Shown here one piece after another: positions 5,937-30,657 of a stretch of 64,000 nt of DNA (within the stretch, counting starts at the first letter, position 1; every line of letters starts with the position of its first letter). The DNA comes from Fodinibius sp. Rm-B-1B1-1. Lineage in GTDB: Bacteria; Bacteroidota; Rhodothermia; Balneolales; Balneolaceae. The translations under genes were made by a program, and so were the position numbers. The notes under the pieces were generated by a model that worked only from the letters and a program-made list of their open reading frames with translations, was not told the origin of the DNA and made no database searches. The stretch covers positions 1,488,001 to 1,552,000 of the forward strand of contig NZ_JBCFYD010000002.1 in assembly GCF_038594945.1 (NCBI RefSeq). Direction: 5' to 3'.

Positions 5937-5959
5937 TGCATATTCCATTTGTGACCATA

Positions 5960-13005: not shown

Positions 13006-14694
13006 TTAATTAGTCTTATCTTCGATTCGTTTCTCTATGGCCTCTCCCAGCGATTGGTACTGATGGTACAACCTCTGGTACTGTTCAGTTTTATCGGGAT
13101 TAGGTTCATAAATTGTTCCAAACCCATTACCCATGACATCCTTGGCTTCGCTTACATCAGAAAATAAATCCGCAGCTGTAGCTGCAAACATAGCCGCACC
13201 AGTTGCACAAACTTGATCTGATTTGGCAATTTTAATCGGCATATCAAGTACATTAGCCAGCGTTTGCATTACATATGGAGATTTTTTTGCAACACCGCCC
13301 AGGCCAATAATTCCTTCTATAGGGATTCCTTCATCCCGGAACCGCTCGACAATAGCCTTGGCACCAAAACAAGTAGCTTCCACAAGAGCTTTAAAAATTC
13401 GTCCGGCATCACTGCCAAGATCCAAGCCCTCAATAGCTCCTTTCAAAAGCTGATTAGCATCGGGCGTACGTCGACCATTAAGCCAATCAAGAGCCACAAT
13501 ACCTGTATCAACTTCTTCGACCTCAGCTGCAGCTTTCGATAACTTTGGAATCAATTTATCTTCTGCTTCATCAATCAATTTCCGTTTCTGATCATCCGAA
13601 AGTAAATCAGACTCATCAATTACTTGAGCAAAAGGCTCAAGAATTACATCCCTGAACCAAGCATAAACATCCCCAAACGAGGACTGCCCAGCCTCAAGTC
13701 CAACCATACCCGGAATAACTGAACCATCAACTTGTCCACAAATACCCTTTACAAGATTGTCTTGCACATCATCATAGGGAGCAACTAAAATATCACAGGT
13801 GGAAGTACCCATTACACGGCTCAAGTAGTAAGGTTCAATTTCTCCGCCAACAGCACCCATATGTGCATCAAATGCTCCCACCGAAACAACAACATCTTCC
13901 GACAAACCAAGCTTTTGGGCCCATTTTTTTGATAGTGTTCCCGCCGGCTGATCCGAGGTGAAGGTATCGGTAAACAGTCGGTCTCGAAGATCAGCAAGCT
14001 CAGGATCTAACGTAGACAGATATTCTTTGCTCGGCAATCCATCAAATTCTTCATGCCACATTGCCTTGTGTCCGGCAGCACAACGGCTTCTTTTCATCTG
14101 ATGCACATCGTCCCCTCCAGTAAGCTCATAGGGAACCCAGTCGCAAAGCTCTACCCAAGAATAGGCCGCATCACGAATCTGCTGATCGTTACGGATAGTG
14201 TGTAGAATCTTAGCCCAAAACCATTCTGAAGAATAAATACCGCCCACATATTTTGTGTAATCAGGTCCATCCCACGAACGAGCTAAATCGGTAATTTCTT
14301 CGGCTTCTTTAACCGCTGTATGATCTTTCCACAGGATAAACATTGCATTGGGATTCTCTGCATATTCATCCTTAAACGCCAGCGGCGTACCAGTTTTATC
14401 TACTGCAACCGGCGTAGATCCAGTCGTATCAACGGCAATACCTTTAACATTGGCTGCAATTTCATCATCAACATTTTGTAATACGTTGGATAGTGTATTC
14501 TCCAATCCTTCAAGGTAATCAAGTGGATGGTGACGAAACTGATTTTCAGTAGGCTGACAATACTTCTTATCTTTCCAGCGCGAATACTGATGCACAGATT
14601 CTGAAAGCTTATTTCCTTCGGTATCAACCAACACTGAACGTACCGAATCTGTACCGTAGTCAATACCAATTACACAATTGTTTTGAGCACTCAT
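13006..14694 (-). CDS. araB: L-ribulokinase
   Basis: FGGY-family kinase phosphorylating L-ribulose to L-ribulose 5-phosphate. The N-terminal phosphate motif GIDYGTDSVRS, the substrate motif DTTGSTPV, the SVGAFDAHMGAVGG segment and the C-terminal adenosine motif GLGGVAKKSP are those of AraB rather than of xylulokinase. Length (562 aa) is normal for AraB. It is the first gene of the araB-araD-araA-symporter run, preceded by a 132-base gap that holds a candidate operator, so it probably has its own regulated promoter. Confidence 0.96.
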   Translation of the reverse strand: MSAQNNCVIGIDYGTDSVRSVLVDTEGNKLSESVHQYSRWKDKKYCQPTENQFRHHPLDYLEGLENTLSNVLQNVDDEIAANVKGIAVDTTGSTPVAVDKTGTPLAFKDEYAENPNAMFILWKDHTAVKEAEEITDLARSWDGPDYTKYVGGIYSSEWFWAKILHTIRNDQQIRDAAYSWVELCDWVPYELTGGDDVHQMKRSRCAAGHKAMWHEEFDGLPSKEYLSTLDPELADLRDRLFTDTFTSDQPAGTLSKKWAQKLGLSEDVVVSVGAFDAHMGAVGGEIEPYYLSRVMGTSTCDILVAPYDDVQDNLVKGICGQVDGSVIPGMVGLEAGQSSFGDVYAWFRDVILEPFAQVIDESDLLSDDQKRKLIDEAEDKLIPKLSKAAAEVEEVDTGIVALDWLNGRRTPDANQLLKGAIEGLDLGSDAGRIFKALVEATCFGAKAIVERFRDEGIPIEGIIGLGGVAKKSPYVMQTLANVLDMPIKIAKSDQVCATGAAMFAATAADLFSDVSEAKDVMGNGFGTIYEPNPDKTEQYQRLYHQYQSLGEAIEKRIEDKTN

Positions 14695-14756: not shown

Positions 14757-14775
14757 AATTGTAAAAAAAACACTT
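14757..14775. promoter_or_regulatory. Candidate arabinose-regulator operator upstream of araB
   Basis: AATTGT-AAAAAAA-ACACTT; read on the minus strand it is AAGTGT-N7-ACAATT, so 11 of 12 arm positions agree with the palindrome found at 5918-5936 and 30732-30750. It lies 63 bases before the araB start in the araR-araB gap. Confidence 0.6.
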
Positions 14776-14826: not shown

Positions 14827-15531
14827 TTACAATTTTATGGGCTTAAAGGTAAGGCTATCTCCCTTTTCAACTTTCTCTTCATATTTGTCCTCATTGAACT
14901 TGTAGAGATAAGCTCCCTTCTTAGAATATTTTTTTTGTTTTTCATCCGTTTTGGTCAAAATATTCATAGATAAAATACGTCTGCGAAAGTTCCGTTTATC
15001 GAGCTCTGTTTCATAAATGCCCTCGTATAATATCTGCAGCTCGGGCATCGTAAATTTCTCGGGAAGTAGTTCAAAGCCAACCGGTTCGTGAGAAGCCCGG
15101 TATTTAAGGCGCGACTTGGCAGCTTCAACCATTTGATTGTGATCAAAAATGAGGTCAGGCAAATCGTCAATCGGGAACCAGCGAGCACTGTATTTGTCCA
15201 TCAATTCCTTATCGTGTTGATGGATATTGATTAGCGCGTAGTAAGCAATGGAGACGGTTCGTTCAACGGGGTCACGGTCTACTTCACCAAATCCATAAAG
15301 TTGTTCGAGATACACATTTTCAAGCCCTGTTAGTTTATGGAGGATACGGTCGGCAGCCTCATCAAGACTTTCCTCCCGGTTTAAGAACCCGCCCATAAGC
15401 GACCACTTTCCCTTTTCTGGCTCAAAATCCCTCTTGATCAGTAACAGCTTTAACCCATTGCGATCAAAGCCAAAAATAATACAATCGAGTGCTACAAGTA
15501 TTCGGTCGTGATCTTTATAATAATTTTCCAT
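14827..15531 (-). CDS. araR: NUDIX-winged-helix transcriptional regulator of arabinose genes (AraR/NrtR type)
   Basis: Two domains: an N-terminal NUDIX fold (about residues 8-145 from this start) and a C-terminal winged helix (about 150-225, with KFTMPELQILYEGI and RRILSMNIL). The NUDIX box GGFLNREESLDEAADRIL lacks the canonical REXXEE glutamates, as expected for a sugar-sensing domain without hydrolase activity. This matches the arabinose-responsive regulator known from Bacteroides. The longest frame starts at 15573, but family members begin near MENYYKDHDR, so the ATG at 15531 is used. It lies after a GH51 gene and before araB, all minus strand. The bound ligand (arabinose) is inferred. Confidence 0.88.
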   Translation of the reverse strand: MENYYKDHDRILVALDCIIFGFDRNGLKLLLIKRDFEPEKGKWSLMGGFLNREESLDEAADRILHKLTGLENVYLEQLYGFGEVDRDPVERTVSIAYYALINIHQHDKELMDKYSARWFPIDDLPDLIFDHNQMVEAAKSRLKYRASHEPVGFELLPEKFTMPELQILYEGIYETELDKRNFRRRILSMNILTKTDEKQKKYSKKGAYLYKFNEDKYEEKVEKGDSLTFKPIKL

Positions 15532-15554
15532 GGTAAAACGCTTAATTGTAGCGC

Positions 15555-15578
15555 TGCAGGCGTATTCCTGCAACGCCT
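15555..15578. promoter_or_regulatory. Two overlapping, mutually exclusive hairpins in the araR leader
   Basis: TGCAGG-CGTATT-CCTGCA (15555-15572) and AGGCGT-N9-ACGCCT (15558-15563 with 15573-15578) share bases, so only one can form at a time. They lie between the GH51 stop and the preferred araR start. A role in controlling araR translation or message processing is possible but unproven. Confidence 0.4.
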
Positions 15579-15592: not shown

Positions 15593-17137
15593 TTACTGAA
15601 TGCGTAAGACGATAACAGATTTTGAGGGAATCTGCAACGTCAACTCGCCTCCTTTGAGCTCGTAATCGGTATAACTTTGCGGTGATACGTTATCGGGATT
15701 ATCAAAGGTATTAATAGCATCCACAGCATCGCCCGTAAGAATACGAGCATCATTTACCGATGATAAATCTGCACCCCGAATATCAGCTGTTACTTCTTGT
15801 GTTTCGGATGCATGTAAATTTGAAACGGTAAGGTTTACTGTTCCATCATCACTTTTTGAAGCGGTAGCGCTAACGGCTGGAATATTTTCCCCCTTATATT
15901 CATAAGTACCGGCATCTAAATGCAGCGGTAAAAGCTTAGTATTATGATGCACTGTGTAAAAATCAAATACATGGTAGGTTGGGGTTTTAATCATCTGTTT
16001 CCCTTCGGTAAGAATCATCGCCTGTAACACATTTACAGTCTGTGCTATATTTGCAATACGAACGCGATCGCTGTGCTTATTAAGGATATCAAGTGTCGTT
16101 GAAGCTACCAATGCATCACGAATAGAATTCTGTTGCTGTAAAAATCCGGGATTACTACCTTCAATAGGATCGGTCCAAACACCCCATTCATCAACAGCCA
16201 GGGTAATACGCTTTTCGGGATCATATTTATCCATACGATTGGAGTGCTGCTTTACATATTTATCCATAACAAGTCCCTCTTTGAGGGTAGAAAAATACAT
16301 GTCTTCACCAAAGTCTTTTGAGGGACCTTTTTTCTGCCAATTACCGGTTGGCAAGGTATAATAATGCAGCGAAATCGCATCCATTTGGTTGCCGGCCTCC
16401 TCTACAACTGTTTCGGTCCATTGATACCTATCATCAGAAAAACCACTGGCAATTTTAAAGAGTTCATTGCCGCTATAATTTTTGGCAAAGGTTGCGTATC
16501 GGCGATACAAATCTGCATAATAATCGGCCTGCATATTTCCACCGCAGCCCCAACTTTCGTTACCAATACCCCAGAATTTCACTTCCCAGGCTTCGTCCTG
16601 ACCATTTTCGCGCCGCAAATTGGCAAGGGTGCTATTGCCATCGTAAGTCATATATTCAATCCAGTTAGCCATCTCTTTGGGCGTTCCACTTCCCACGTTC
16701 GCCGAGATATACGGTTCCGTATCAATCAATTCGGTCAGACGCATAAATTCGTGTGTTCCTACCTGGTTCTTTTCTTCTACCATTCCCCAGTGTGTATTAA
16801 TGCGAACGGGGCGCTCATCACGCGGACCTATGCCATCTCTCCAGTGGTACTCATCGGCAAAACAACCACCCGGCCATCGTACGTTGGGAACCTCTAACTC
16901 TTTCAATGCTTGAATGACATCATTGCGAAAACCATCGGTATTAGGAATATCAGAATTCTCCCCCACCCAGAGTCCGCCATATACGCCGGTTCCCAAGTGC
17001 TCAGAAAACTGCCCATAAATATGTTCACTGATGGTGCTTTGCGGCTGATCGGCCGTAATAACCATACTATTCTGTGCTGTAGCTGCAAAACAACCCAGCA
17101 ATAAAACCATTAACGGCGTCAATATTATTTTCTTCAT
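15593..17137 (-). CDS. GH51 alpha-L-arabinofuranosidase, exported
   Basis: Retaining exo-enzyme releasing L-arabinose from arabinan and arabinoxylan side chains. The start chosen (17137) gives a 22-residue signal sequence; LLGC at its end could be a lipobox, or the AATAQ after it could be a peptidase I site. Catalytic acid/base is E194 (GIGNES) and nucleophile E317 (VDEWGVW). A longer frame adds nine residues before the second Met. The C-terminal all-beta domain is complete. It is one of two GH51 enzymes here and ends 61 bases before the araR start. Confidence 0.93.
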   Translation of the reverse strand: MKKIILTPLMVLLLGCFAATAQNSMVITADQPQSTISEHIYGQFSEHLGTGVYGGLWVGENSDIPNTDGFRNDVIQALKELEVPNVRWPGGCFADEYHWRDGIGPRDERPVRINTHWGMVEEKNQVGTHEFMRLTELIDTEPYISANVGSGTPKEMANWIEYMTYDGNSTLANLRRENGQDEAWEVKFWGIGNESWGCGGNMQADYYADLYRRYATFAKNYSGNELFKIASGFSDDRYQWTETVVEEAGNQMDAISLHYYTLPTGNWQKKGPSKDFGEDMYFSTLKEGLVMDKYVKQHSNRMDKYDPEKRITLAVDEWGVWTDPIEGSNPGFLQQQNSIRDALVASTTLDILNKHSDRVRIANIAQTVNVLQAMILTEGKQMIKTPTYHVFDFYTVHHNTKLLPLHLDAGTYEYKGENIPAVSATASKSDDGTVNLTVSNLHASETQEVTADIRGADLSSVNDARILTGDAVDAINTFDNPDNVSPQSYTDYELKGGELTLQIPSKSVIVLRIQ

Positions 17138-17184
17138 ACGAAATGATTGTTTTAAAAATGACATAACTATTATGATTTAAAGAA

Positions 17185-18356: not shown

Positions 18357-20336
18357 TTAATTACTGTTTTTAAAGACGGTATTATCTTGCTCAAAAAGCA
18401 TCACAAACCCTCCATTTCCATTCATTACTACATTTATTGTTTCAGAAGGCATAGTTTCATCACGGCTAATGTCGTATAATTCCTCACCATCTTTAAAGAT
18501 TGTTCCATGTAACTGACTCGGAATAAATGACAAATCAAAGGATATTTCTTTGGAATTTTTCTCTCCATTAATCCCTACTACAAACCAGCGGTCACCGGCC
18601 CTGCGTGCTATTACTACATGCTTGCCGGGAAATCCATCTACAAACTGCATTTCATCCCACGCCACAGGAATCCGCTTTATAAATTCCCGTACATCCTCCG
18701 AAACTTCTTCCATCCCACGTGCCGTCTCGGCGTAATGCTGAATCCCGGAAGTAAACAGCACCGGCAAAGCCAGCTCGTGGGCAGTAGTCGTTTTCCGCTT
18801 AACATTATGTAATTCAGTCAGACTCATGGGCGTATAATCCATGGGACTAAACACATTCCGTGTAAACGGCAACATCGTATTGTGATTAGCAGCTTTATCA
18901 GCATTTTGCTGCTCAAAAGTGATAAATTCAAATCCTTTGACCGATTCCATGGTCATAAGATTGGGCCACGTACGGTGCCAACCACGCGGCAACGTTGTGC
19001 CATGCGTATTAACAAGAAGATTGTGATCGGCGGCATCCTTAAAAATATCCAAGTAATACTGTATCATTGATTGCCCGTCGCCGGCAAAAAAGTCTACTTT
19101 TATTCCTGCAATACCCATTTCTTGTAATTTGCTAAATTCCTCGACTCGGTCTTCATGGGTCAACAGCTGACTTTTAGGCGTATAATCTGTTGAATTCCAG
19201 CTGCCCGACGAATTGTACCAAAGAAAAAGCTCAACATCTTTAGAGTCCGCATAGTCAGCAAGCTCCGCCATGCGATCGTAGCCAATCGTCGAATCCCATG
19301 CGACATCAACAAGCGTGTATTTCCAGCCCATCTCGGCAGCATAGTCGATAAACCGTTTTTGATCTTCGTAATTCACCGAGGGATCTTTGAGCTTTGCCCA
19401 GCTCCACGAAGCGCTGCCCGGCTCAATCCACGAGGTATTTTCCAGTTGCGACTCTGCTGCCAAATCGGTCCCCAGTGTTGATTCCGTAATCGTTTTCAGG
19501 TCACCGACCGTAATAATACGCCACGGGGTTGGCCACGGCAAATTGGACTTTGGATCGAGCGCCTTGCCCGGAAACTGCTCTCCCTCCTGTGGAAAGCCGA
19601 TTTGATAATTGCCATTTGGAGCTTCCTGCTGTAAACGCGTGGCAGGATAGTTGCCATCCATTCCTGCTTCGGAAATCAATAGCCATGTTTCCCCCGATTT
19701 AAACAATGCCGGATACGCCCATCCCGCACTGTCGGGAGCAGAAGTACCAACTTTGACATCCTGCAGATAATGCTCTTCGTACGAGGGATTCGTCTCAGCG
19801 AAACCGGTATTTACATTGGCCAACGGCTCGAGCCATGCCCGACTGTCTTCCGGTACATTAAAGGACGTGTGTTCCTCAGTAATAAAATGAGTTTGGTCAC
19901 TTTCATTGGGAAAATGATACCGGAATCCTACGCCGTCATTTGAAACCCGAAAAGTGATGTCCAACGGAGCCCCCGATTTATGCCGCAGATGATATGTTTG
20001 TTCTGTTGCTGTATAGCTAATTTCGGTTTGCTTGCCGTGCTGCAGCGAATACTGATCCTCAATTTTTTCCGGACCGGATACCGATTCCAACATCATATTC
20101 CGGGAAAAATCAATATCATCGCGGGTTAAACCCAGTTGAGATTGCTCCAACACAATAGAATCCTGATACGAAATTGAGTACGTTGGCTGGGTATCATCCA
20201 TCAGTTCAAAATGAAGTTCAATGCTTCCCTCCGGACTCTCAACATTGTGACCATCATTTTCACATGCCACAAATAGGAAAACAAGAACGGGCATTATCGA
20301 TAGCCTAATGATATGTGCGTGTGTTTTTATGATCAA
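18357..20336 (-). CDS. GH97 retaining glycosidase, lipoprotein (alpha-galactosidase or beta-L-arabinopyranosidase)
   Basis: Full-length GH97 protein (659 aa): beta-super-sandwich domain, then a TIM barrel, then a C-terminal beta domain. LFVAC at residues ~21-25 is a lipobox. The residues typical of retaining GH97 enzymes are present: nucleophile D415 in GIKVDFFAG and acid/base E464 in MTMESVKG. Inverting members (SusB, alpha-glucosidase) lack an Asp at the first site. Retaining members act on alpha-galactosides, and some on beta-L-arabinopyranosides, which differ from alpha-galactose only at C6. The arabinan context makes the second activity attractive, but specificity is not decided by sequence. 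Confidence 0.9.
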   Translation of the reverse strand: MIIKTHAHIIRLSIMPVLVFLFVACENDGHNVESPEGSIELHFELMDDTQPTYSISYQDSIVLEQSQLGLTRDDIDFSRNMMLESVSGPEKIEDQYSLQHGKQTEISYTATEQTYHLRHKSGAPLDITFRVSNDGVGFRYHFPNESDQTHFITEEHTSFNVPEDSRAWLEPLANVNTGFAETNPSYEEHYLQDVKVGTSAPDSAGWAYPALFKSGETWLLISEAGMDGNYPATRLQQEAPNGNYQIGFPQEGEQFPGKALDPKSNLPWPTPWRIITVGDLKTITESTLGTDLAAESQLENTSWIEPGSASWSWAKLKDPSVNYEDQKRFIDYAAEMGWKYTLVDVAWDSTIGYDRMAELADYADSKDVELFLWYNSSGSWNSTDYTPKSQLLTHEDRVEEFSKLQEMGIAGIKVDFFAGDGQSMIQYYLDIFKDAADHNLLVNTHGTTLPRGWHRTWPNLMTMESVKGFEFITFEQQNADKAANHNTMLPFTRNVFSPMDYTPMSLTELHNVKRKTTTAHELALPVLFTSGIQHYAETARGMEEVSEDVREFIKRIPVAWDEMQFVDGFPGKHVVIARRAGDRWFVVGINGEKNSKEISFDLSFIPSQLHGTIFKDGEELYDISRDETMPSETINVVMNGNGGFVMLFEQDNTVFKNSN

Positions 20337-20349
20337 AACTATCTTCTAT

Positions 20350-21936
20350 TTATTCTCCTGTCTTTTTTCCCCAGACCGAACGCCCCGTGGACGTAAGGCC
20401 GGTGTACGTTATCGTGGTTGATCGAGGCGATATTTCCCAGTCCCAGGCATTATCTACGATCAGTTCCATATCATTTACCGTCAGCGTCTGGGACTCTTCA
20501 TCATACGACCATGTGCCATCTAATGCTCCTCCGAGCGTATTATCCTCGTTAAATTCAACGCGATATGAGGTTTGCATGGTCTGGTATTCATATTCGAGCG
20601 TAACTTCTTCCCAGTTTCCTATAATATCTTCTTTGGTAATTTCCGTTTCGGGAACATCCGCATACCGCTCAGGAGCTACCACCGGCCAGCCGTCATCGGT
20701 CCAGTAAATTTCACGCACATGCCCCATCATCACTGCATTCGAAGCGTTAATGCCAGATATATCCGGAGGCAATCGTCCTTGCGAAGAATAAAACCATTCC
20801 CCGGAATCCGGATCTTGAAAAATAGAAGGATGAGAAATACCTACCCACCCGTGATGTCCATCAAATTTATAGGGGTGCGTCACCACAGGCCAATCCTCAG
20901 CCCCATTTGTTACGTTATTACCATCAATGCCGTAATATGGACCAGTAATATTTTCAGAGCGAACCACACGTGTGTTATATGCCACCGACAATTCATCATA
21001 AGCCAAAAATAGGTAGTAATAGCCAGTCTCTTCATTATAAATGATTTCTGGAGCCTCAAGGGGTTGCCATCGGGAATTTCCACGTCCCGCTATTTTTGTA
21101 CCATAATCTTCCAGATCAGTTAGCTCGTACGGCTTACCTGTTTCCGGATCGAGTTCAACTGCTGCGATGCCCGAATGCCAGGAACCATAGATCAACCAGT
21201 GCTCTCCTTCGGGCGTAGTAACATAGGATGGATCAATGGCATTGAATTTAAAATAAGCGCTCCAGTCATTGCCCCCATCCCGGTCATAGGTTTCTTCGCC
21301 ATCGGCAACAGAATGAATCACCATTCCCTTGTCCTCCCAATTATTAGAAGAAAGATCATCCGATTCGGCCAGCCCAATAAATGCCCGCTCAGTCCACGAT
21401 GTATTTGGATCATCTCCTTCAATGGGATTATCAATAATTACGCTGTAATACATTCGATAGGTTCCATTCACTTTTGTGATATGGGGAGCCCAAAATCCAT
21501 AATTTGGATTTTCTATTGGGGGTAAATCCATCTCAGCACGAATACTATTCAATGAATCCTTAACCCAAGATTGTACCTCAGAAAACGCAGCTCCCCGGTA
21601 CTCCCAATTCACCAAGTCCTTTGACCGGCGATAAGGATAATTCCCATGTCCCTGGTGTACGTTGCCATAAGAGGCATTCGTCTGATACATGTAAAAAAAA
21701 TCTCCGTCTTTTACTACCGTTGGGTCATGAACATTTTCCAGATCCCATTCACCGCGATCCGACCAATCCGACCGGGAAGTGTAGTCATCAGAATACATCG
21801 GACCATCAAACGTTTCGGTCTCCTCATCGGAATCTTCATCATCACCATCATCATCTACACCAGTGGAATTATCGCTGCAGCTCACAAGAAGCACCAGCGA
21901 GCAAAATCCGATAAGTATAAATTTCAGGTAATTCAT
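20350..21936 (-). CDS. GH43 arabinanase with C-terminal beta domain, surface lipoprotein
   Basis: Lipobox LLVSC is followed by an acidic tail (DDDGDDEDSDEE), like the export signals that carry Bacteroidetes lipoproteins to the cell surface. The propeller has D71 (VHDPTVV), D235 (AIDPSYV) and E294 (LEAPEII). From about residue 430 a beta-rich domain (GNWEEVTLEYEYQ onwards) matches the accessory domain of Abn2-type endo-arabinanases. The longest frame begins at 22008, but the ATG at 21936 gives a proper signal peptide. It differs from the tandem GH43 pair in size and location, so it is probably the surface endo-enzyme. Confidence 0.9.
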   Translation of the reverse strand: MNYLKFILIGFCSLVLLVSCSDNSTGVDDDGDDEDSDEETETFDGPMYSDDYTSRSDWSDRGEWDLENVHDPTVVKDGDFFYMYQTNASYGNVHQGHGNYPYRRSKDLVNWEYRGAAFSEVQSWVKDSLNSIRAEMDLPPIENPNYGFWAPHITKVNGTYRMYYSVIIDNPIEGDDPNTSWTERAFIGLAESDDLSSNNWEDKGMVIHSVADGEETYDRDGGNDWSAYFKFNAIDPSYVTTPEGEHWLIYGSWHSGIAAVELDPETGKPYELTDLEDYGTKIAGRGNSRWQPLEAPEIIYNEETGYYYLFLAYDELSVAYNTRVVRSENITGPYYGIDGNNVTNGAEDWPVVTHPYKFDGHHGWVGISHPSIFQDPDSGEWFYSSQGRLPPDISGINASNAVMMGHVREIYWTDDGWPVVAPERYADVPETEITKEDIIGNWEEVTLEYEYQTMQTSYRVEFNEDNTLGGALDGTWSYDEESQTLTVNDMELIVDNAWDWEISPRSTTITYTGLTSTGRSVWGKKTGE

Positions 21937-22045
21937 GTTTATGTTGGATTTATTTATCCGTCCGACTGCAAATTCTTCGGCGGATGGCATTACTTCCTTT
22001 GTGCCCATGGATAAATCCGTGGGCTAAGCACTTTTTATATAGAAG

Positions 22046-22059
22046 CTCACTTAAGTGAG
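22046..22059. repeat. 14-bp perfect palindrome between GH51 and GH43 genes
   Basis: CTCACTTAAGTGAG in the 175-base gap between the stop of the minus-strand GH43 start region and the GH51 gene. It has no spacer, so it is more likely a DNA-binding site or processing element than a terminator. It is not the AAGTGT-N7-ACACTT motif. Confidence 0.4.
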
Positions 22060-22111
22060 TTTAGGATTCCTCTTAGCCTGATGATTCTATCTTCAGGCGT
22101 TAGAGCACACC

Positions 22112-23752
22112 CTATTCTGACGTTATTTTCCCTTTGATCATCGTATACGAATGAGCTGGGAAGGTATAATTGATCGTTTCTCCATTAGCTTGGATAGAGG
22201 ACTTTTGCACCGCCTCAACCCGGGTATTATCAAAATCATTTTCTGCTTTAATGTCTGGACCATTTACCTCATGAACCTCAAATTCTCCATCAAAAATACC
22301 CTGCTGGGAGATGATATCAGTGTTAATAGCTTCATCTTTATGGCGGTTAACCACATTAATTACTACTTCACCATCATCAGTATACGTTGCTGAAACATCC
22401 AAATAAGGCACATCTTTTTCCTTAGTCGGAGAATAACCCGCCCCACTGTTAAAGATCTCCGTATCATAGGTATCGGAATCCACATACACATCTAATGCCG
22501 TGCCATGCGCATTATTAGCAAACAGTTTCATGGGGTGATAGATCGTCTGCAGGAACATGTCGTCTTCTTTGGTAAAAATAGGTGCAATGACATTCACAAG
22601 TTGTGCCATATTCGCCATTTTTACGATATCGGCGTTACGGATGAATCCGTTAAGAAATCCCGCTACTACCAGTGCGTCTTCAAGATTATAACGCTCTTCC
22701 AAGGCAGTATAACCTGTCCCCCCTTCTCCGCCACGAGCACGGTACCAGACGTTCCACTCGTCCCAGGCGATATAAATCTGTTCATCTTCTCCGCGCTCGG
22801 GATCCTGCATTACTTCTTCAATCATCCCCCGTACAATCTGTGTGCGCTGCTCCATCACACGTGGACTGGCCATAAAATCGTAGTAGTTATCGTCTTCGTT
22901 ACCCACATAAATGTGCAGCGAAATGTAATCGATATAATCTTTGAGCTCTTGGATAACCGTTCGATTCCATTCATCGGGATCGGCATCTTCGCCGTAATAA
23001 TTTGATGATCCCGCTGCTACAATCTTGATGCTCGGGTCAGTCCACGACATCAACTTGGCCGCTTCGCGCGCTTTCTTGCTGTAATCTTCTGCATTTAAAT
23101 GACCCATCTGCCAGTGTCCATCCATCTCATTGCCCAGACTCCAATACTTAATATTATGGGGCTCTTCATAACCATGATCAGCACGTAGATCAGCATAATA
23201 AGGTCCTTTTTCAAGATTCCGCTTGTCGGTTTCATCGGGACCTGCCTCAATATTAGTGTATTCTACCCAGCGACGTGCTTCTTCAATAGTCCCGGTTCCC
23301 AGATTCACGGCAAAATACGGCTCTGTGCCTACCTTCTCGGCAAACTCCATAAATTCATTGGTCCCAAAAGTGTTGGGATCCTGGACGTCCCAAGCTAAAT
23401 CCATGCGTGTGGGACGATCTTCTTTGGGTCCTACCCCATCTTGCCAGTGATAATTGGAAACAAAATTTCCGCCGGGATATCGAAGCAACGTCACATTCAT
23501 ATCTTTAACCGCTTTTATAACATCCGTTCGAAAACCATCCTCGTCGGCCAACGGCGAATCGGGATCATATATCCCCCCATAAATATGACGCCCCAAGTGC
23601 TCAGTAAAGTTTCCATACAGGTGCTCGTGCACTTCACCAATCGTACGATCGATATCAATTTTAATACGTGCATCCTGAGCTTGGGTTGGTATAGCTATTA
23701 TAACCAATAATAAAGCAACTCCTGCCGCCATTATCTTCTGAAGGTTCTTCAT
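22112..23752 (-). CDS. GH51 alpha-L-arabinofuranosidase, periplasmic
   Basis: Second GH51 enzyme of the locus, only moderately similar to the first. A type I signal peptide ends near PTQAQ (about residue 26). Catalytic acid/base E209 (SLGNEMDG) and nucleophile E332 (WDEWNVWY) are in place. The stretch between them resembles cytosolic-type GH51 enzymes active on arabino-oligosaccharides, whereas the other copy is closer to enzymes of secreted type; the two may divide polymer and oligomer substrates. Flanked by GH43 and GH127 genes on the same strand. Confidence 0.93.
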   Translation of the reverse strand: MKNLQKIMAAGVALLLVIIAIPTQAQDARIKIDIDRTIGEVHEHLYGNFTEHLGRHIYGGIYDPDSPLADEDGFRTDVIKAVKDMNVTLLRYPGGNFVSNYHWQDGVGPKEDRPTRMDLAWDVQDPNTFGTNEFMEFAEKVGTEPYFAVNLGTGTIEEARRWVEYTNIEAGPDETDKRNLEKGPYYADLRADHGYEEPHNIKYWSLGNEMDGHWQMGHLNAEDYSKKAREAAKLMSWTDPSIKIVAAGSSNYYGEDADPDEWNRTVIQELKDYIDYISLHIYVGNEDDNYYDFMASPRVMEQRTQIVRGMIEEVMQDPERGEDEQIYIAWDEWNVWYRARGGEGGTGYTALEERYNLEDALVVAGFLNGFIRNADIVKMANMAQLVNVIAPIFTKEDDMFLQTIYHPMKLFANNAHGTALDVYVDSDTYDTEIFNSGAGYSPTKEKDVPYLDVSATYTDDGEVVINVVNRHKDEAINTDIISQQGIFDGEFEVHEVNGPDIKAENDFDNTRVEAVQKSSIQANGETINYTFPAHSYTMIKGKITSE

Positions 23753-23843
23753 AGTTATATTCGATGTCGAGTTAATATTAATTGCGTTGGTAGAATCAGA
23801 TCAGGCTATCTCACTATCTGATATCTTATTCGTAACCAACCAC

Positions 23844-25796
23844 TTAGTTATTTTTGTGATTCAAACCCCAGTAAACGGTATAGTGCTCATGGTTTACCTG
23901 GTAGAACGGAGCAAGTGTAATACCACTTGCTTCACCAACATTTTGCAGCTCAAACTGCAGTGGTTTCTGCGAGGATTTCATCCAGCTCTCCGTCTTATCA
24001 TTTTCGGGCTCTAATCCCGGGACATCCACAGTGGGTAAGTCAAAATATTCGTATTGCTCGCTGCCGGCATATTGTCCCTGAATGGGTACTTCCTCTCCTA
24101 CAATGCCTGCCAGTAAAATGGGCCCATGCATAAAAGCAATCTTGCTGTCATCACCACTAAGTGGCTCTGTTCTTGTTTTCATTGGCAACTGCACTTCAAT
24201 TTTATCGCCATCTTTCCAGGTTCTTTCAATTGCGATATAGTTGCTCGGCTGTTGAGAAACTTCAACTTTTTCCCCATTCACAAAAATGGTAAATCCGTCA
24301 CCGGCCCAACTTGGCCGTCGAACCTTCATTACAAACTTGTGGGGACTCTCAGTACTAACCGTAAATGTACTTTTCTCTGATTCTGGAAATGCGGTTTCCT
24401 GACGGAGCGAAATTCCCTGCTCTTGCCAATTGAGCTCAGAAGGAATAAACAAATTCACGTATAACTCGTCCTCACCATGCATATAAATATAGCGGCCGTA
24501 TTTGGTATGATTTTCCATTCCGCTGCCCACACAGCACCAGAACGAATCGAATGGCTTGCTGAAGGTCTTATAGGTTCCCGGCTCCATCGAAATATAATAG
24601 GCGAACATGCCTGTTTGCGAATCTTGTGAAGCTAAAATGTGATTATATAATGCTCGCTCATAATAGTCAGCGTAAGCGGCATCAGCTTCCCACTGCGATA
24701 GATGCCGGGTAAGTTTTAACATATTATAGGTGTTGCACGTCTCGGAACTGGATCGGCTTAACTCTTCTGATATAATTCCACCTTTGGGACCAAAATGCTC
24801 ACCATCGCTGTTGCCACCATTGGCATAAGTACGTCCATTGACTACCGTTTGCCAGAAAAAAGTAGATAGCTCCCGCATCTCTTCATTTCCTGAGACCTCA
24901 TAGTTCCGCGCCGCTCCTATAATTTTGGGGATCTGGGTATTAGCATGTAATCCTTCGAGTTGATCTTCATTCTCAGCTAACGGATCTTCAATAGCTTCAT
25001 GGGTAAATCGATCAGACAATTCTAAATACCTTTGATCACCTGTTATAGCATACAAGTCAGCCATTACTTCTTTCATGCCGCCGTGCTCAGTCTGTAGCAT
25101 TTCTTGGAATTGCTCTTCCGAAAGATCATCCGCCCACTCAACCGTCCAGTCTGATAATTTAATCAGTATATCCAGGGCCTGCTCATTTTCAGCATGTCGA
25201 TGGGCATCGCGTAACCCTGCAAACAGCTTGTGCAGGTTATACCATGGTACCCAGCTTCCATTTAATGCAAAAGACTCAGCTTCGATATCGCCCGACCGAA
25301 CCTCGTTTATAATTTCTTCGCCGTTAGGTACGCCACCTATGTAGCCAGTTTTGTTGGCTTTCTGGGCACGTTTCAATTCACTAACCACGTAATTTAATCG
25401 CTCTCCAAATGCCTGTTTACCCGTCGAGGCATAAATCATGGAAAGTGCAGACAGGTAATGGCCCAGCGAATGACCGTCGAGCCCTTCTCCTATTTCTCCT
25501 TGGGCTTCCCAACCGCCATAACTTTCTCCTTTCGGATCCAAACCAGCCTCTTCCAAATACGGAGCCAGCAGGCGATCGGCTTCCAGTCTCAAAAGATATT
25601 TACCATCGAGTTCCATGGCTTTTTTAAATGGACTATCGAGTAGTTCTACCTCACTGAGTGCAAACATATTTAGCTTGATCGCTGATGAGGTATGATCTTG
25701 GGCATGTAATGATAGCCCCAATCCCGATATTAGTATCAGAATTATCAGCAATGCACCTTTTGATAGATTTGAATATGAAACCTTTATATTACTCAT
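23844..25796 (-). CDS. GH127 beta-L-arabinofuranosidase
   Basis: Exported enzyme (signal peptide to about residue 32, LHAQ) of the former DUF1680 family, 650 aa. The zinc-thiolate active site of GH127 is complete: E352 and C354 in SSETCNTYNM, and C421-C422 in FWCCVGSG, the second Cys being the nucleophile in characterised members. The (alpha/alpha)6 barrel is followed by beta domains. Family members release beta-L-arabinofuranose, as in hydroxyproline-linked arabinans or some pectic side chains. It begins after the terminator-like hairpin behind susD, so its expression may be set apart from susCD. Confidence 0.92.
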   Translation of the reverse strand: MSNIKVSYSNLSKGALLIILILISGLGLSLHAQDHTSSAIKLNMFALSEVELLDSPFKKAMELDGKYLLRLEADRLLAPYLEEAGLDPKGESYGGWEAQGEIGEGLDGHSLGHYLSALSMIYASTGKQAFGERLNYVVSELKRAQKANKTGYIGGVPNGEEIINEVRSGDIEAESFALNGSWVPWYNLHKLFAGLRDAHRHAENEQALDILIKLSDWTVEWADDLSEEQFQEMLQTEHGGMKEVMADLYAITGDQRYLELSDRFTHEAIEDPLAENEDQLEGLHANTQIPKIIGAARNYEVSGNEEMRELSTFFWQTVVNGRTYANGGNSDGEHFGPKGGIISEELSRSSSETCNTYNMLKLTRHLSQWEADAAYADYYERALYNHILASQDSQTGMFAYYISMEPGTYKTFSKPFDSFWCCVGSGMENHTKYGRYIYMHGEDELYVNLFIPSELNWQEQGISLRQETAFPESEKSTFTVSTESPHKFVMKVRRPSWAGDGFTIFVNGEKVEVSQQPSNYIAIERTWKDGDKIEVQLPMKTRTEPLSGDDSKIAFMHGPILLAGIVGEEVPIQGQYAGSEQYEYFDLPTVDVPGLEPENDKTESWMKSSQKPLQFELQNVGEASGITLAPFYQVNHEHYTVYWGLNHKNN

Positions 25797-25979: not shown

Positions 25980-27545
25980 TTAATCGTTAGCAGGGTTGGG
26001 TTCCAAATTCGGATTCACATCGAGCTCGCGCTGCGGAATTGGCAAGTATTCATCACCGGTATCCCAACTGTTGAACTCAGCATCACGCTGTTGCAGCTCG
26101 GGTACCTTATACCGCGGACTGCTCTCATCAAACCATCCCCACCGAATCATATCGTGGATACGCTGGCCTTCGATAGCGAACTCAAGGGCTCGTTCATGAG
26201 CAATCTGTTCACGCATTTCATCTCGTGTAAAACCGGTAAACTCGGCTGTACGGTCAGGTAGATTTGCCCGATCTCGAACCTGTTGCATGTATTGAGCCGC
26301 TGTTGCTCGGTCGTCAAGCTCATTCTGTGCCTCAGCATACATCAATAAAATATCGGCATAACGAAGTACACGATAGTTAATACCGGACTGCTCCCTAAGC
26401 TCTGCATATGGCAACCCTTCATGGGTATATTTTCGCGGATATATTTCATCCTGTCCATATGGCCAGGGATCTCCATACACAGTCGTGGAATTTTCTCCAG
26501 GCTCATACGAAACAATGGTATCCAGCAAGCGCGGATCTTTATTTCCACTTACCGTTTGCTCTTCGTTGAATTCATCATATAGCCACTGTGTGGGCAAGAA
26601 ATCCGAATATCCATATCCTTCGGCTGCATAGGTATAAGATTGTGAAGATACCTGCATCCAGTTGCTGTTCGGTTCACAACAGTAATTCATTTCTGAACCT
26701 CCAACTTGATCAGGATCGGCAAACTGGACCTCGAAAAGTGACTCTACATTGTTTTCGTTATCGATATTGAAGTTGTGGCGAAAATTATCCACTAAGTCAT
26801 AGACTTCCATCGGACTACTTTCTCCTGCACCGGGTATCAACAACTCAAATTCACTGGCCGCATTTTGCCATTGCTCACGATATAGGTAGGCTTTCCCCAA
26901 CATACCAGTTGCTGCACCAGCTGTAGCACGGCCAACTTGTCCTTGGTCAGGGCCGTCAATATTTTCATAGGAAACCGGAAGCCGATCTTTCGCGTCACTA
27001 AAATCATCAATTATTTGCTGCCACAGATCTTCCTCAGATGCCGTAGGCTCGTTAAATTCATCGGGATCGGGCAAGGCATCACTAATTGGTACTCTGTGGA
27101 AATTATTGGCAAGATTAAAGTAAGCCAATCCACGTAAAAAGTGAGCCTGTCCAACGATACGCTCCTTTAACGCTTCATCGATTTCCATTTCTGGTACATA
27201 TTCCAGGATCTGGTTGGCCCGATAAATAAGAACGTAATGTTCTCTCCATACCCACTCAACTGGACCAGAGGTAGCCGGAACGTTAAAAGCAGCTACCTGC
27301 CATAAATCTGGCCACGGGGTATCTGCCTTAAACCCATCGCTACGTCCATCCGTTAAAGCCGGTATCATCCGCATATAGGTACCGTCCATGATCAAACCAT
27401 TGTACATGGCATGACTGGCTCGTACGGCATCTGATTCTGTTTCCCAGAAGGTATCAGCAGTGGGCTCGTTGGGATTTGTTAAATCCAACTGATCATTGCA
27501 ACCCACAAACATCATAAGTGCAATTAAAAATATTAGTTTCTTCAT
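25980..27545 (-). CDS. SusD/RagB-family glycan-binding lipoprotein
   Basis: Surface lipoprotein that caps the SusC channel and binds the oligosaccharide. The short signal peptide ends at FVGC (Cys16), and the mature N-terminus is polar. TPR-like helices with the SusD signatures (FLRGLAYFNLA and the C-terminal ERALEFAIEGQRIHDMIRWG) are clear. An upstream in-frame ATG at 27617 would overlap the SusC stop and place 24 residues before the signal peptide; the ATG at 27545 is preferred. Length 521 aa is normal. Paired directly with the SusC gene. Confidence 0.93.
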   Translation of the reverse strand: MKKLIFLIALMMFVGCNDQLDLTNPNEPTADTFWETESDAVRASHAMYNGLIMDGTYMRMIPALTDGRSDGFKADTPWPDLWQVAAFNVPATSGPVEWVWREHYVLIYRANQILEYVPEMEIDEALKERIVGQAHFLRGLAYFNLANNFHRVPISDALPDPDEFNEPTASEEDLWQQIIDDFSDAKDRLPVSYENIDGPDQGQVGRATAGAATGMLGKAYLYREQWQNAASEFELLIPGAGESSPMEVYDLVDNFRHNFNIDNENNVESLFEVQFADPDQVGGSEMNYCCEPNSNWMQVSSQSYTYAAEGYGYSDFLPTQWLYDEFNEEQTVSGNKDPRLLDTIVSYEPGENSTTVYGDPWPYGQDEIYPRKYTHEGLPYAELREQSGINYRVLRYADILLMYAEAQNELDDRATAAQYMQQVRDRANLPDRTAEFTGFTRDEMREQIAHERALEFAIEGQRIHDMIRWGWFDESSPRYKVPELQQRDAEFNSWDTGDEYLPIPQRELDVNPNLEPNPAND

Positions 27546-27600
27546 GGTCTTAGTCATTAAATTTGGTATTGAACACTCAAAATCGGTGTAAAAATTAAGA

Positions 27601-30600
27601 TTAGAATCCAACATCAATGCCCACAGTCAATGTTCTTGGTGTTGGATAAGACCCATTATTATACCCGGGTTCAAATACACCGGAAGTAAAGTCCGGGTTG
27701 TACCCTTTATAAGCGGTAAAGGTATATACGTTTTGTGCATTTACGTATATCCGAGCATTGGAAATTGACAAATAACTTGTCAGATTTTCAGGTAGCGTAT
27801 AACCCAACTGCAATGTATTGATCCGGAGATGTGTCCCATCCTGCAGCCATCCTTCGCGATCGGAGTTACGGTTGTTATTATTGGGATCTCCTACGATTCT
27901 GCGGGGAATATCAGTATCGGTATTTTCTGGTGTCCATCGGTCCAGCATATCAGTATGATAATTCATATAATCGCTGGTAGCCATAAGGGTACGATACATC
28001 CGGCTATGAATGAGATAATCTCCCATTCCCGAGGCAAATACTGTAAAGTCGAAGTTTTTGTACTCCCCGGTGAAATTCAGGCCATAATTGATACTTGGTA
28101 ACCCACTTCCCAGATAGGTTCGGTCCTCATCATTTATTACTCCGTCATCGTTTAAGTCTTTAAACCTGAGATCTCCCGGAGCTGTACCCGCATTTTGGAA
28201 AGCGTGATCACTAATTTCATCCTGAGATTGGAAAATACCATCAGTTACATAACCATAATGGCGACCGACTTCACCACCTACGGCGGTACGTGTTCCAGTT
28301 CCAATTATGGGTTCATCTTCTCCCCCCAACGCAAGCACCTCGTTTCTAAGCGTACTCAAATTGGCCGTAATCTCGAAAGTAAAATCTCCCCGAGTTTTTC
28401 GGTACGTAGCTGCGAACTCCAGACCTGAATTCTGAAGCTCACCTGCGTTAACGGTTGGACTGTTATTTGCTCCTACAGACAACGGAATTGGTACTCCTAC
28501 TAAAATATCAGATGTTACGCTTTGATAATATTCGGCAGATAAATCAACCGTTCGATCCCAAAAGGAAGCATCAAAACCAATGTTTTTCGTCGTTTTGGTT
28601 TCCCATTTGATACTTTCATCCGCAATTTGTGTTTGAGTACTGCCAATAACTTTTGTTCCACCATAATTATAAACCACTCCCGGATTCACCGTACTGGAAT
28701 ACAGGTAATCTCCAATATTTTGGTTACCTAATTTACCATAGCTGGCCCGTATTTTGAATTCCGAGATAAAGTCTGGTAACGAGATAAACTCTTCGTTATG
28801 AATATTCCACCCTAATGAAGCTGAGGGAAAATTACCGTACCTATTTTGGGGTGCAAATCGAGATGATCCATCCCGCCGAATAGTGGCAGTAAGCAAATAG
28901 CGATCATCATAATTGTAATTCATTCGACCAAAGTAGGAAACAAGTGCATTTTCATACTGCTCTCCAGATGCCGTTTTGTTTGACCCGTTGTCAAGCACCT
29001 TAAAGTATGGCTGTGCAAAGTTTTCGGAATATCCATTACGAAGTACGGATGTTCCCTTTTGATATGTCTGTCCAATCAAAGCTGTTACATTATGCCGATC
29101 GGCAAAGACATTTTCATAGGTTAGTGTATTCTCAATAACAGTAGTACTGTAAATATCCTGACCATCATTGAGCCGGGCACTGGTATTATTAAAGAAAAAG
29201 CCCATTTCAAATTCAGGCACCCAATTATAATTTCGAACATTCGTCCGATCATAGCTTACATTTAACTTATAGGTCAATGCCTGATCATCTTGGTCAATAA
29301 TATTAGCCTGAGCATAACCAGCCGCAAAAGAACGATCCACATTGGTCTCTCCCTCCAATAATTGATTGGTACATGGAACATTCAATACAATCACGTTATG
29401 AACATCGGATTCTGTACCTGCACATCCTCCTATATTAGATTCATCATAGACACTAAGTGTAGGCACTGCAATATTCAAGTCGACAATCATAGGCGGACGC
29501 CCACCCGTCAGCACATTGGTATTGTAATTCAATGCTTTTTCATCAGTATGGGTATAGTAAAAATTCTGTCCGAATTCGAATATCCCCTTTTCCATTGTTG
29601 TATTAAGCCGGGCCGAATAGCGCTTATAATCAGGTCCATGTCCTACCAATGTACCCTGATCATCTACATAATCTAGCGATACGTTATACGTGGTATAATC
29701 ACCACCGCCAGAAAATTTCAATGTATGATTCATTCGTTGGCCCGTTTCCAATCCTTCCTCCTGCCAATCAGTATTTACATCATCCACATAATTTGGGTGA
29801 TTAGGATCGTTTCCAGGATTTAAAGATTCACCAGCATTTATTTGCCCTTCATTACTCAACATCTGGTAATTTTCCCGTTCTGTAACAGGTATATCCTGCC
29901 AAATTTGGCTGACTCCATATGTTCCGCTATAACTTACTTGCAACGGCGTATTTTTTGTCCCTTTCTCAGTGGTTATAAGTACTACACCATTTGCTGCACG
30001 CGAACCATAAATAGCAGCAGCAGATGCATCTTTTAATACCTCTACTGATGCTATATCATTCGGATTAAAATCTCTGATACTTGTGCCAACCGGAACACCA
30101 TCAATAACATATAAGGGCTGGCTATCACCAAAGGTACCCACACCACGAATTTGTATATTCGGTGCGGCTCCAGGCTCTCCATCTGATTTTACCTGTAAAC
30201 CTGGCACCCGCCCACGCAGTACTTCAGACGGATCCGTTGCGCTATATTTTTCAATTTCTTCTGAACTAACCTGAGATATGGAACCGGTTACATCTTCTCG
30301 TTGCTGGGTTCCATATCCTACAACTACAACATCTTCCCCCATTAAGGCTTGGGGTTGTAATGAGATATGTATTTCTGACCGTCCTTGTATTGGAACTTCC
30401 TGAGACTGATATCCAACATAAGAAAATACGAGTGTATCGGTTGATGACACAGCGGTTACTTCATATTGTCCATCAACATCTGATGTAGCACCCCGAGTCG
30501 TTCCCTTCACCAGTATATTTACTGCCGGAAGTGATTCTGAAGTACTTGCATCTATCACCGTTCCCGAAACGGTATGTTGGGCTAACACATCTACCGACGA

Positions 30601-30657
30601 AAAGACGGTAAATACAGCCATCAACAATACAATTTTAATATGTAAGTGTGATTTCAT
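27601..30657 (-). CDS. SusC/RagA-family TonB-dependent outer-membrane transporter
   Basis: Outer-membrane importer for the arabinan-derived oligosaccharide. Signal peptide to about residue 26 (VLAQ), then a carboxypeptidase-regulatory-like beta domain (27-110), the TonB-box region (DVVVVGYGTQ), the plug with EVLKDASAAAIYGSRAANGV, and a 22-strand barrel ending in the aromatic terminal strand (TVGIDVGF). At 1018 aa it is full length. There is no N-terminal signalling extension, so no anti-sigma partner is expected, consistent with control by the NUDIX regulator. Two candidate operators lie 75 and 205 bases upstream. Confidence 0.94.
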   Translation of the reverse strand: MKSHLHIKIVLLMAVFTVFSSVDVLAQHTVSGTVIDASTSESLPAVNILVKGTTRGATSDVDGQYEVTAVSSTDTLVFSYVGYQSQEVPIQGRSEIHISLQPQALMGEDVVVVGYGTQQREDVTGSISQVSSEEIEKYSATDPSEVLRGRVPGLQVKSDGEPGAAPNIQIRGVGTFGDSQPLYVIDGVPVGTSIRDFNPNDIASVEVLKDASAAAIYGSRAANGVVLITTEKGTKNTPLQVSYSGTYGVSQIWQDIPVTERENYQMLSNEGQINAGESLNPGNDPNHPNYVDDVNTDWQEEGLETGQRMNHTLKFSGGGDYTTYNVSLDYVDDQGTLVGHGPDYKRYSARLNTTMEKGIFEFGQNFYYTHTDEKALNYNTNVLTGGRPPMIVDLNIAVPTLSVYDESNIGGCAGTESDVHNVIVLNVPCTNQLLEGETNVDRSFAAGYAQANIIDQDDQALTYKLNVSYDRTNVRNYNWVPEFEMGFFFNNTSARLNDGQDIYSTTVIENTLTYENVFADRHNVTALIGQTYQKGTSVLRNGYSENFAQPYFKVLDNGSNKTASGEQYENALVSYFGRMNYNYDDRYLLTATIRRDGSSRFAPQNRYGNFPSASLGWNIHNEEFISLPDFISEFKIRASYGKLGNQNIGDYLYSSTVNPGVVYNYGGTKVIGSTQTQIADESIKWETKTTKNIGFDASFWDRTVDLSAEYYQSVTSDILVGVPIPLSVGANNSPTVNAGELQNSGLEFAATYRKTRGDFTFEITANLSTLRNEVLALGGEDEPIIGTGTRTAVGGEVGRHYGYVTDGIFQSQDEISDHAFQNAGTAPGDLRFKDLNDDGVINDEDRTYLGSGLPSINYGLNFTGEYKNFDFTVFASGMGDYLIHSRMYRTLMATSDYMNYHTDMLDRWTPENTDTDIPRRIVGDPNNNNRNSDREGWLQDGTHLRINTLQLGYTLPENLTSYLSISNARIYVNAQNVYTFTAYKGYNPDFTSGVFEPGYNNGSYPTPRTLTVGIDVGF

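What the first reader, a model, noticed from the sequence alone, without database searches (positions are those of the whole stretch)
18357..25796. GH127 and a retaining GH97 imply unusual arabinose linkages
The locus has GH127 (beta-L-arabinofuranosyl-releasing family) and a GH97 with D415 and E464, the retaining type that acts on alpha-galactose or beta-L-arabinopyranose. Together with two GH51 and three GH43 enzymes this suggests a substrate with beta-linked arabinose caps, such as an arabinogalactan, an extensin-like glycan or an algal arabinan, rather than plain linear arabinan.
Basis: partly seen in the sequence, partly recalled or inferred. Interest (0 to 1): 0.55.

Follow-up and report, generated by a model that had tools for sequence, protein, structure and literature searches.

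The report
Arabinan-degradation operon with two cap-removing enzymes
This is a bacterial gene cluster for eating the plant pectin side-chain arabinan, and two of its enzymes probably remove rare beta-linked arabinose caps; the system is largely of a known type, but the cap-removing GH97 enzyme belongs to a branch in which we found no tested member.

Summary
The genes are real. The "GH127" is nearer to GH146: 583 bits to 5OPJ (BT0349), 47 to 3WKW (HypBA1, GH127) (protein names of PDB entries recalled). [quoted passage not shown] D415 fits the nucleophile; E464 lines up with a calcium ligand, and E470 is the likely acid/base.

All three GH43 resemble endo-1,5-alpha-arabinanases. The cluster carries two GH51, araBAD, an AraR-type regulator and SusCD. 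Three exact AraR-like sites lie before its two gene groups; 0.03 are expected in 64 kb. The substrate is most likely alpha-1,5-arabinan.

Beta-linked Araf and Arap are reported on ordinary pectic arabinan, so such caps do not point to arabinogalactan, extensin or an algal polymer. The inference of beta caps holds up; the substrate inference does not.

A marine arabinan PUL with nearly the same parts is published. New here: BT3661-type GH97 lie within 10 kb of a GH146 hit (450 bits or more) in 12 of 35 cases, other GH97 in 0 of 91. GH97 specificity remains a prediction.

The parts
27601..30657 (-). SusC-like TonB-dependent outer-membrane importer
   Evidence: TIGR04056 850.6 bits, cut-off 368
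25980..27617 (-). SusD-like glycan-binding protein, probable lipoprotein
   Evidence: PF07980 E 1.3e-45; lipobox-like N-terminus read by eye
23844..25796 (-).
   Evidence: 5OPJ 583.6 bits; these six positions identical in 12 of 12 aligned sequences
22112..23752 (-). GH51 alpha-L-arabinofuranosidase, signal-like N-terminus
   Evidence: 3S2C 405 bits; PF06964; N-terminus
20350..22008 (-). GH43 endo-1,5-alpha-arabinanase of BT0360 type, probable lipoprotein
   Evidence: NF049889 (BT0360) 679 bits over cut-off 600; endo-arabinanases among solved structures; N-terminus by eye
18357..20336 (-). GH97 retaining glycosidase of the BT3661 group, predicted beta-L-arabinopyranosidase; D415 nucleophile, E464 Ca ligand, E470 acid/base (predicted), V345 where BT1871 has Glu
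   Evidence: 5XFM 443 bits versus 168 for 3A24; tree; aligned residues
17185..18339 (-). Aldose 1-epimerase with signal-like N-terminus, AraM-like mutarotase by position
   Evidence: PF01263 E 1.5e-96; NCBIfam galactose-1-epimerase subfamily NF008277 343 bits over 240; N-terminus
15593..17164 (-). GH51 alpha-L-arabinofuranosidase, signal-like N-terminus
   Evidence: 2VRK 616 bits; N-terminus
14827..15573 (-). NrtR-family AraR-type regulator (Nudix plus winged helix)
   Evidence: NrtR_WHD 94 bits, AraR_C 44.6 bits over cut-off 23.8; NCBIfam's ADP-ribose-responsive NrtR model not met (150.8 of 400)
13006..14694 (-). L-ribulokinase AraB
   Evidence: TIGR01234 613 bits over cut-off 583
12286..12990 (-). 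L-ribulose-5-phosphate 4-epimerase AraD
   Evidence: NF006047 351 bits over cut-off 257
10855..12255 (-). L-arabinose isomerase AraA
   Evidence: three AraA Pfam domains
8980..10728 (-). SSS sodium:solute symporter, AraP-like by position
   Evidence: PF00474 E 4.4e-82
5906..6976 (+). GH43 endo-1,5-alpha-arabinanase-like
   Evidence: 1GYD 344 bits
7022..8104 (+). GH43 endo-1,5-alpha-arabinanase-like
   Evidence: 1GYD 347 bits
5919..5935 (.). AraR-like operator AGTGTN7ACACT at the head of the two-GH43 unit; it lies inside the ORF as called from 5906, so the true start codon is probably further down (inference)
   Evidence: 3 such sites found, 0.03 expected in 64 kb; similar site at L191:13080 in G151
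30733..30749 (.). AraR-like operator upstream of susC
   Evidence: a similar site at L190:5694, 76 bp before susC in same-genus genome G151
30863..30879 (.). Second AraR-like operator upstream of susC; not seen in G151 with the strict pattern
14757..14775 (.). Weaker AraR-like operator (1 mismatch) between araR and araB

Best explanation
The locus is an L-arabinose-controlled operon for decorated pectic arabinan (alpha-1,5-linked L-Araf with side caps). Endo-arabinanases cut the chain at or outside the cell surface, and SusCD imports the pieces. In the periplasm the GH51 enzymes remove alpha-Araf, the GH146 removes terminal beta-L-Araf, and the GH97 removes terminal beta-L-Arap with retention (D415 nucleophile, E470 acid/base, Ca held partly by E464). 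A mutarotase and symporter pass L-arabinose to AraABD, and arabinose releases AraR from the operators before susC and before the GH43 pair. Shown: gene content, family placement, motifs, operator-like sites. Inferred: enzyme locations, GH97 specificity, regulation, substrate.
For: Family placement: GH146 583 bits to 5OPJ, GH97 443 bits to 5XFM/BT3661 versus 168 to 3A24/BT1871, three GH43 nearest to endo-arabinanases, araBAD, AraR, GH51. Tree of 155 GH97 rows (154 distinct): window and BT3661 in one clade of 96, support 0.989, without BT1871. Residue after D344: Ala, Val or Ile in 71 of 71 close and Ala, Trp or Asn in 38 of 38 middle GH97, Asn in BT3661; Glu in BT1871 and in 14 of 18 other retaining GH97. 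BT3661-type GH97 within 10 kb of a GH146 hit: 12 of 35 (one is the window) versus 0 of 91 other GH97. AraR-like sites: three in the window, 0.03 expected; the exact 19-bp form occurs at two places in the genome, both in this cluster. Literature passages: a beta-1,3-arabinopyranosyltransferase that acts on linear arabinan (PMC4226231); beta-L-Arap-(1,3)-Ara released in small amount from sugar-beet arabinan (PMC10688797); [quoted passage not shown]
Against: The window GH97 is in a sister subclade of the BT3661 branch (37.6% identity to BT3661; subclade support only 0.572), with no characterised member found, so transfer of specificity is uncertain; BT3661 itself also cleaves alpha-galactosides. 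Its only NCBIfam hit is a retaining alpha-galactosidase model (232 bits, cut-off 800 not met), and the neighbouring epimerase meets a galactose-1-epimerase subfamily model. 31 of 51 close-clade GH97 loci with 8 kb flanks, window excluded, show no GH146, GH51, arabinanase-like GH43 or ara gene at my thresholds. Of four genomes of the window's genus in the survey, two have both genes, one has only a middle-class GH97 and one neither. Before the count I dropped 8 weaker GH146-type hits (250-312 bits) of 44; adding them by hand gives 13 of 35 versus 1 of 91. Operator sites within 1 mismatch before BT3661-type GH97: 9 of 108, versus 26 of 1237 other ORFs and 1 of 41 distinct other GH97; Fisher p 0.001 against the ORFs, ignoring shared ancestry. 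With 1 mismatch the genome has 10 operator-like places versus 7 for a reversed control. CpArap27, a GH27 beta-L-arabinopyranosidase, released no arabinose from sugar-beet arabinan (PMC4598101, passages), so such caps may be rare there.
Confidence: 0.66

Rival explanations
1. The GH97 is mainly an alpha-galactosidase that removes alpha-Gal caps (such as Gal-alpha-1,3-Araf) from arabinan or arabinogalactan fragments; the rest of the operon is as described.
For: alpha-D-Gal and beta-L-Arap are structurally similar (PMC5853685); BT3661 is bifunctional (PMC10086023); gum arabic carries both caps (PMC10688797); earlier papers label GH97 in arabinose loci AgaL or alpha-galactosidase (PMC4666351; PMC7939548); the next gene meets a galactose-1-epimerase subfamily model.
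Against: The Glu that follows the conserved Asp in BT1871 and in 14 of 18 other retaining GH97 is replaced in 109 of 109 members of this group, though the role of that residue is unproven; the context is L-arabinose genes.
Confidence: 0.22
2. The locus targets type II arabinogalactan, extensin glycans or a sulfated algal arabinan rather than arabinan.
For: beta-L-Araf occurs in arabinogalactan proteins and extensin, beta-L-Arap in gum arabic and larch arabinogalactan (PMC10850190; PMC10688797); a GH30_2 plus GH53 plus GH2 locus exists elsewhere in the genome.
Against: Three endo-1,5-arabinanase-like GH43 in the cluster; no galactanase among the operon's scanned genes; one sulfatase match in the genome; no AraR-like site near the GH53 locus at up to 1 mismatch. 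GH121 and GH43_24 were not searched for.
Confidence: 0.1
3. GH97 and GH146 sit beside each other by shared inheritance of an old gene block, without acting on the same polymer.
For: 31 of 51 close-clade GH97 loci lack the arabinan genes nearby; the species counted are related.
Against: The pairing recurs in distant groups, including eight betaproteobacterial loci with no SusC hit (L118, L119, L125, L130, L132, L155, L160, L171), in a gene order that differs from the window's.
Confidence: 0.1

Closest known systems
Arabinan PUL of Mesoflavibacter profundi MTRN7 (PMC10405439, passages)
   Same: susC, two arabinanases, two GH51 alpha-L-arabinofuranosidases, a beta-L-arabinofuranosidase (HypBA), a gene called susB at its end, and arabinose-to-xylulose-5-P genes in one locus; induced by arabinan
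   Different: Also has XynD and a GH43 arabinofuranosidase; whether its susB is a GH97 of this group was not stated in the passages read and was not tested
B. thetaiotaomicron arabinan and arabinose loci, BT0349-BT0369 (PMC5061871, PMC4666351, PMC10850190; passages and one section)
   Same: Arabinan PUL with SusCD, BT0349 GH146, AraM/P/R/D/A/B genes, AraR control
   Different: Separate operons and an added regulator, BT0366; [quoted passage not shown] no GH97 in it as far as I recall
[quoted passage not shown] original paper not held; 5XFM as its structure is recalled)
   Same: Closest solved relative, 443 bits; same Asp and Glu pair
   Different: Sister subclade, 37.6% identity; Asn rather than Val after the conserved Asp
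Arabinan clusters with GH127 plus GH27 in the biogas fragment near X. thermophila and in B. longum subsp. suis (PMC9655821; PMC10970622; passages)
   Same: Same make-up: GH43, GH51, a putative beta-Araf enzyme and a GH27; a GH27 of C. polysaccharolyticus is cited there as beta-arabinopyranosidase
   Different: Other families hold the two places; the B. longum GH27 is called a putative alpha-galactosidase

Membership tests
GH146 | Closest to BT0349 rather than to GH127 members | tested here: met
   583 bits 5OPJ, 234 8K7Y, 105 4QJY, 47 3WKW; names of 5OPJ, 8K7Y (Bll3HypBA1) and 3WKW recalled
GH146 | Cys3-Glu zinc site and essential Glu | tested here: met
   E352, C354, C421, C422, E237 identical in 12 of 12; mapping onto Bll3HypBA1 by counting, roles from PMC10850190
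GH146 | Hydrolysis of beta-L-Araf | not testable with these tools
   needs an assay
GH127 (narrow sense) | Closest to HypBA1 or 4QJY | tested here: not met
GH97, retaining type | Asp nucleophile on strand 4, loss of the HE base motif | tested here: met
   D415 and Gly446 in 71 of 71 close members
BT3661 group of GH97 | Clusters with BT3661 and apart from BT1871 | tested here: met
   clade of 96, support 0.989; sister subclade, BT3661 not nested in it
beta-L-arabinopyranosidase | Prefers beta-L-Arap over alpha-Gal | not testable with these tools
   only indirect residue and context evidence
Retaining alpha-galactosidase NF053844 | Curated score 800 bits | tested here: not met
   232 bits
BT0360 endo-arabinanase NF049889 | Curated score 600 bits | tested here: met
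   679 bits for 20350-22008
AraR regulon | NrtR-type AraR plus GTGT-N7-ACAC sites before the genes | tested here: met
   DNA binding itself untested
Type II arabinogalactan PUL | Exo-beta-1,3-galactanase and beta-1,6-galactanase in the locus | tested here: not met
   none among the operon's scanned genes; a GH30_2 in another locus

The most novel reading that the evidence does not exclude
The window's GH97 belongs to an uncharacterised GH97 branch specialised for beta-L-arabinopyranose caps on pectic arabinan. It does in Bacteroidota and some Betaproteobacteria the job that GH27 may do in other arabinan clusters, and many genes now called alpha-galactosidase or susB are really this enzyme. The short GH146 without the covering domain, found with it, can act on the polymer itself.
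Probability: 0.4. Interest if true: 0.5.

Novelty: new member of a known kind. Interest (0 to 1): 0.34.

Why it matters
Beta-linked arabinose caps hinder ordinary arabinan enzymes. If this GH97 branch removes beta-L-Arap caps, it corrects a misannotation that recurs in print, gives a tool for mapping such caps in pectin, and makes their natural abundance testable. The operon itself is a compact, self-regulated version of a known system.

Tried and rejected
Sulfated algal arabinan: one sulfatase match in the genome, 819-aa frame, so unlikely. Pectin backbone use: no GH28 and no PF18370 rhamnogalacturonan-lyase match, while both rang in control genomes; other pectin-backbone families were not searched. 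L064 and L066 resembled xylanase/xylosidase/arabinofuranosidase-type GH43. A pattern-based retaining/inverting label mislabelled some rows and is not used; searches use aligned columns. A recalled specificity residue of BT3661 could not be checked and is not used. The GH27 analogy (one residue biases Gal versus Arap; PMC5853685, PMC4598101, passages) is only suggestive and partly runs against me: in GH27, Glu goes with Arap enzymes while in GH97 it marks the alpha-galactosidase side, and CpArap27 I56A (Ala is the commonest residue in this GH97 group, 74 of 109) cleaved both sugars. The GH97 and GH27 positions are not shown to be equivalent. No structure prediction was run. For print on this GH97 role I saw only listings (5 of 5, 15 of 34, 10 of 24) and passages; none of what I saw assigns GH97 to beta-Arap removal in an arabinan locus.
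Full report
What is there. The reported genes exist at the given places. On the minus strand from 30657 down to 8980 runs a tight array: SusC, SusD, GH146, GH51, GH43, GH97, an aldose epimerase with a signal-like N-terminus, GH51, an NrtR-type AraR, AraB, AraD, AraA and an SSS symporter. Two more GH43 genes lie on the plus strand at 5906-8104. The count of two GH51 and three GH43 is right.

The GH127 label. The protein at 23844-25796 matches Pfam's GH127_cat model, but its best solved relative is 5OPJ (583 bits), then 8K7Y (234), 4QJY (105) and 3WKW (47). I recall these as BT0349 and Bll3HypBA1 (both GH146), GsGH127 and HypBA1 (both GH127). The Cys3-Glu zinc site (E352, C354, C421, C422), E237 and W182 are the same in 12 of 12 aligned sequences. 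By counting on the alignments, W182 corresponds to W162 of BT0349, where the beta-1,3-specific Bll3HypBA1 has Ile522; so BT0349-like specificity, which includes beta-1,2-arabinobiose (PMC10850190), is the better guess. The window protein and four others of the 12 have 648-667 aa and lack the C-terminal extension of the other seven (760-818 aa); short open frames also occur elsewhere (G186, G049, G120). In BT0349 that extension includes a jelly roll that covers the active site.

The GH97. D415 and E464 are at those exact positions. D415 aligns with the Asp that I recall as the BT1871 nucleophile, and the HE motif of inverting members is HG here, so the retaining call is right. E464 and E470 keep the six-residue spacing of E477 (may bind Ca) and the catalytic E483 in QsGH97a, so E470, not E464, is the likely acid/base. 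The best solved relative is 5XFM, recalled as BT3661 (443 bits versus 168 for 3A24/BT1871; 37.6% and 27.2% identity). In a tree of 155 rows the window GH97 and BT3661 share a clade of 96 (support 0.989), the window in its own subclade of 70 (support 0.572). After the invariant D344, this group has Ala, Val, Ile, Trp or Asn in 109 of 109; BT1871 and 14 of 18 other retaining members have Glu. In GH27 one residue biases beta-Arap against alpha-Gal, but there Glu goes with the Arap enzymes (PMC5853685, PMC4598101, passages), so the parallel is suggestive at most.

Genome context of the GH97. In 247 genomes of the phylum, all 126 GH97 hits at E 1e-30 or better (at most four candidates per genome were scored) were compared with 36 of the 44 GH146-type hits (those of at least 450 bits). 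GH97 of at least 350 bits lie within 10 kb of a GH146 in 12 of 35 cases (0.16 expected by random placement in 4.2 Mb), lower-scoring GH97 in 0 of 91; with the eight dropped weaker hits the figures are 13 of 35 and 1 of 91. The score classes were chosen after seeing the hits, and the genomes are related, so the p-values are too small. In the window's own genus, two of four genomes have both genes. Among 51 close-clade loci with 8 kb on both sides (window excluded), 13 have GH146, 10 GH51, 9 an ara gene, and 20 any of these or an arabinanase-like GH43; 31 have none. With 2 kb flanks, which is all I fetched for the control, the figures are 17 of 60 close, 2 of 31 middle and 0 of 40 other GH97 (one gene is counted twice among the others fetched). 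Eight betaproteobacterial loci carry GH97, GH51, GH43 and GH146 together and had no SusC hit.

Regulation. Published Bacteroides AraR sites share GTGT-N7-ACAC (sequences in PMC4666351; the shared core is my reading). The window has exactly three AGTGT-N7-ACACT sites, two before susC and one at the head of the GH43 pair; 0.03 are expected and 0 of 100 shuffles reach three. The exact AAGTGT-N7-ACACTT form occurs at two places in the genome, both here; with one mismatch there are 10 places, versus 7 for a reversed control, four of the 10 inside this cluster and a fifth about 30 bp before the GH43 gene at C1:1000497. The other five were not examined. Similar sites stand before susC and at the head of the GH43 pair in a same-genus genome and directly before GH97 genes in L073, L082, L105, L161 and L181: within one mismatch 9 of 108 BT3661-type GH97, against 26 of 1237 other ORFs in these loci (which include arabinose genes) and 1 of 41 distinct other GH97. 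The window GH97 itself has no site of its own; it lies inside the operon.

Substrate. All three GH43 point to alpha-1,5-arabinan: one passes the BT0360 cut-off, two score 344-347 bits to the endo-arabinanase 1GYD. Beta-1,3-arabinobiose side chains and terminal beta-Araf are reported in pectic arabinans (PMC4226231, PMC6175989), and a beta-1,3-arabinopyranosyltransferase acting on linear arabinan is cited in PMC4226231. AAfase released a little beta-L-Arap-(1,3)-Ara from sugar-beet arabinan (PMC10688797); against this, CpArap27 released no arabinose from it (PMC4598101). Beta caps therefore fit pectic arabinan. A locus about 350 kb away with GH53, GH30_2, GH2, a GH88-like gene and SusCD suggests separate galactan or arabinogalactan use.

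Known or new. The arabinan PUL of Mesoflavibacter MTRN7 has nearly this gene list and is induced by arabinan. Chang et al. already listed GH97 and GH2 genes (AgaL, BgaL) in AraR regulons. The locus is a new member of a known kind. What I did not meet in the searches made is the reading of this GH97 branch as the beta-L-Arap enzyme of arabinan loci.

Limits. No assay, no structure model and no GH121 or GH43_24 search was done. Papers were seen as passages or, for PMC4666351, one section; none was read whole.

Noticed in passing
L185 (G000:C2:1125001-1145000): A second glycan locus with SusCD, GH30_2, GH88-like, BNR_4, GH53, GH2 and a LacI regulator; a broken GH53 piece with two in-frame stops lies beside it.
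   Followed up: partly
G000:C1:1000315-1000333 (L200) and the GH43 gene in L066: AraR-like site with one mismatch about 30 bp before a GH43 gene resembling gly43N beta-xylosidase/arabinofuranosidase.
   Followed up: partly
L118, L119, L125, L130, L132, L155, L160, L171: Betaproteobacterial GH97-GH51-GH43-GH146 clusters without a SusC hit, suggesting transfer or convergent assembly.
   Followed up: no
window 31756-33405: Fusion of a BlaR1-type M56 peptidase with a TonB C-terminal domain, divergent from the operon; a small BlaI-like gene seems to precede it (read by eye, not searched).
   Followed up: no
window 23844-25796; L072, L075, L076, L077: Short GH146 (648-667 aa) lacking the C-terminal extension of the other seven aligned; all five lie in a 20-kb stretch with a close-clade GH97. 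Three other genomes also show short frames.
   Followed up: partly
L001 (G000:C2:1373543-1374439): A second GH97 in the genome, 703-aa frame, not among the matches at E 1e-30 to the window GH97.
   Followed up: no
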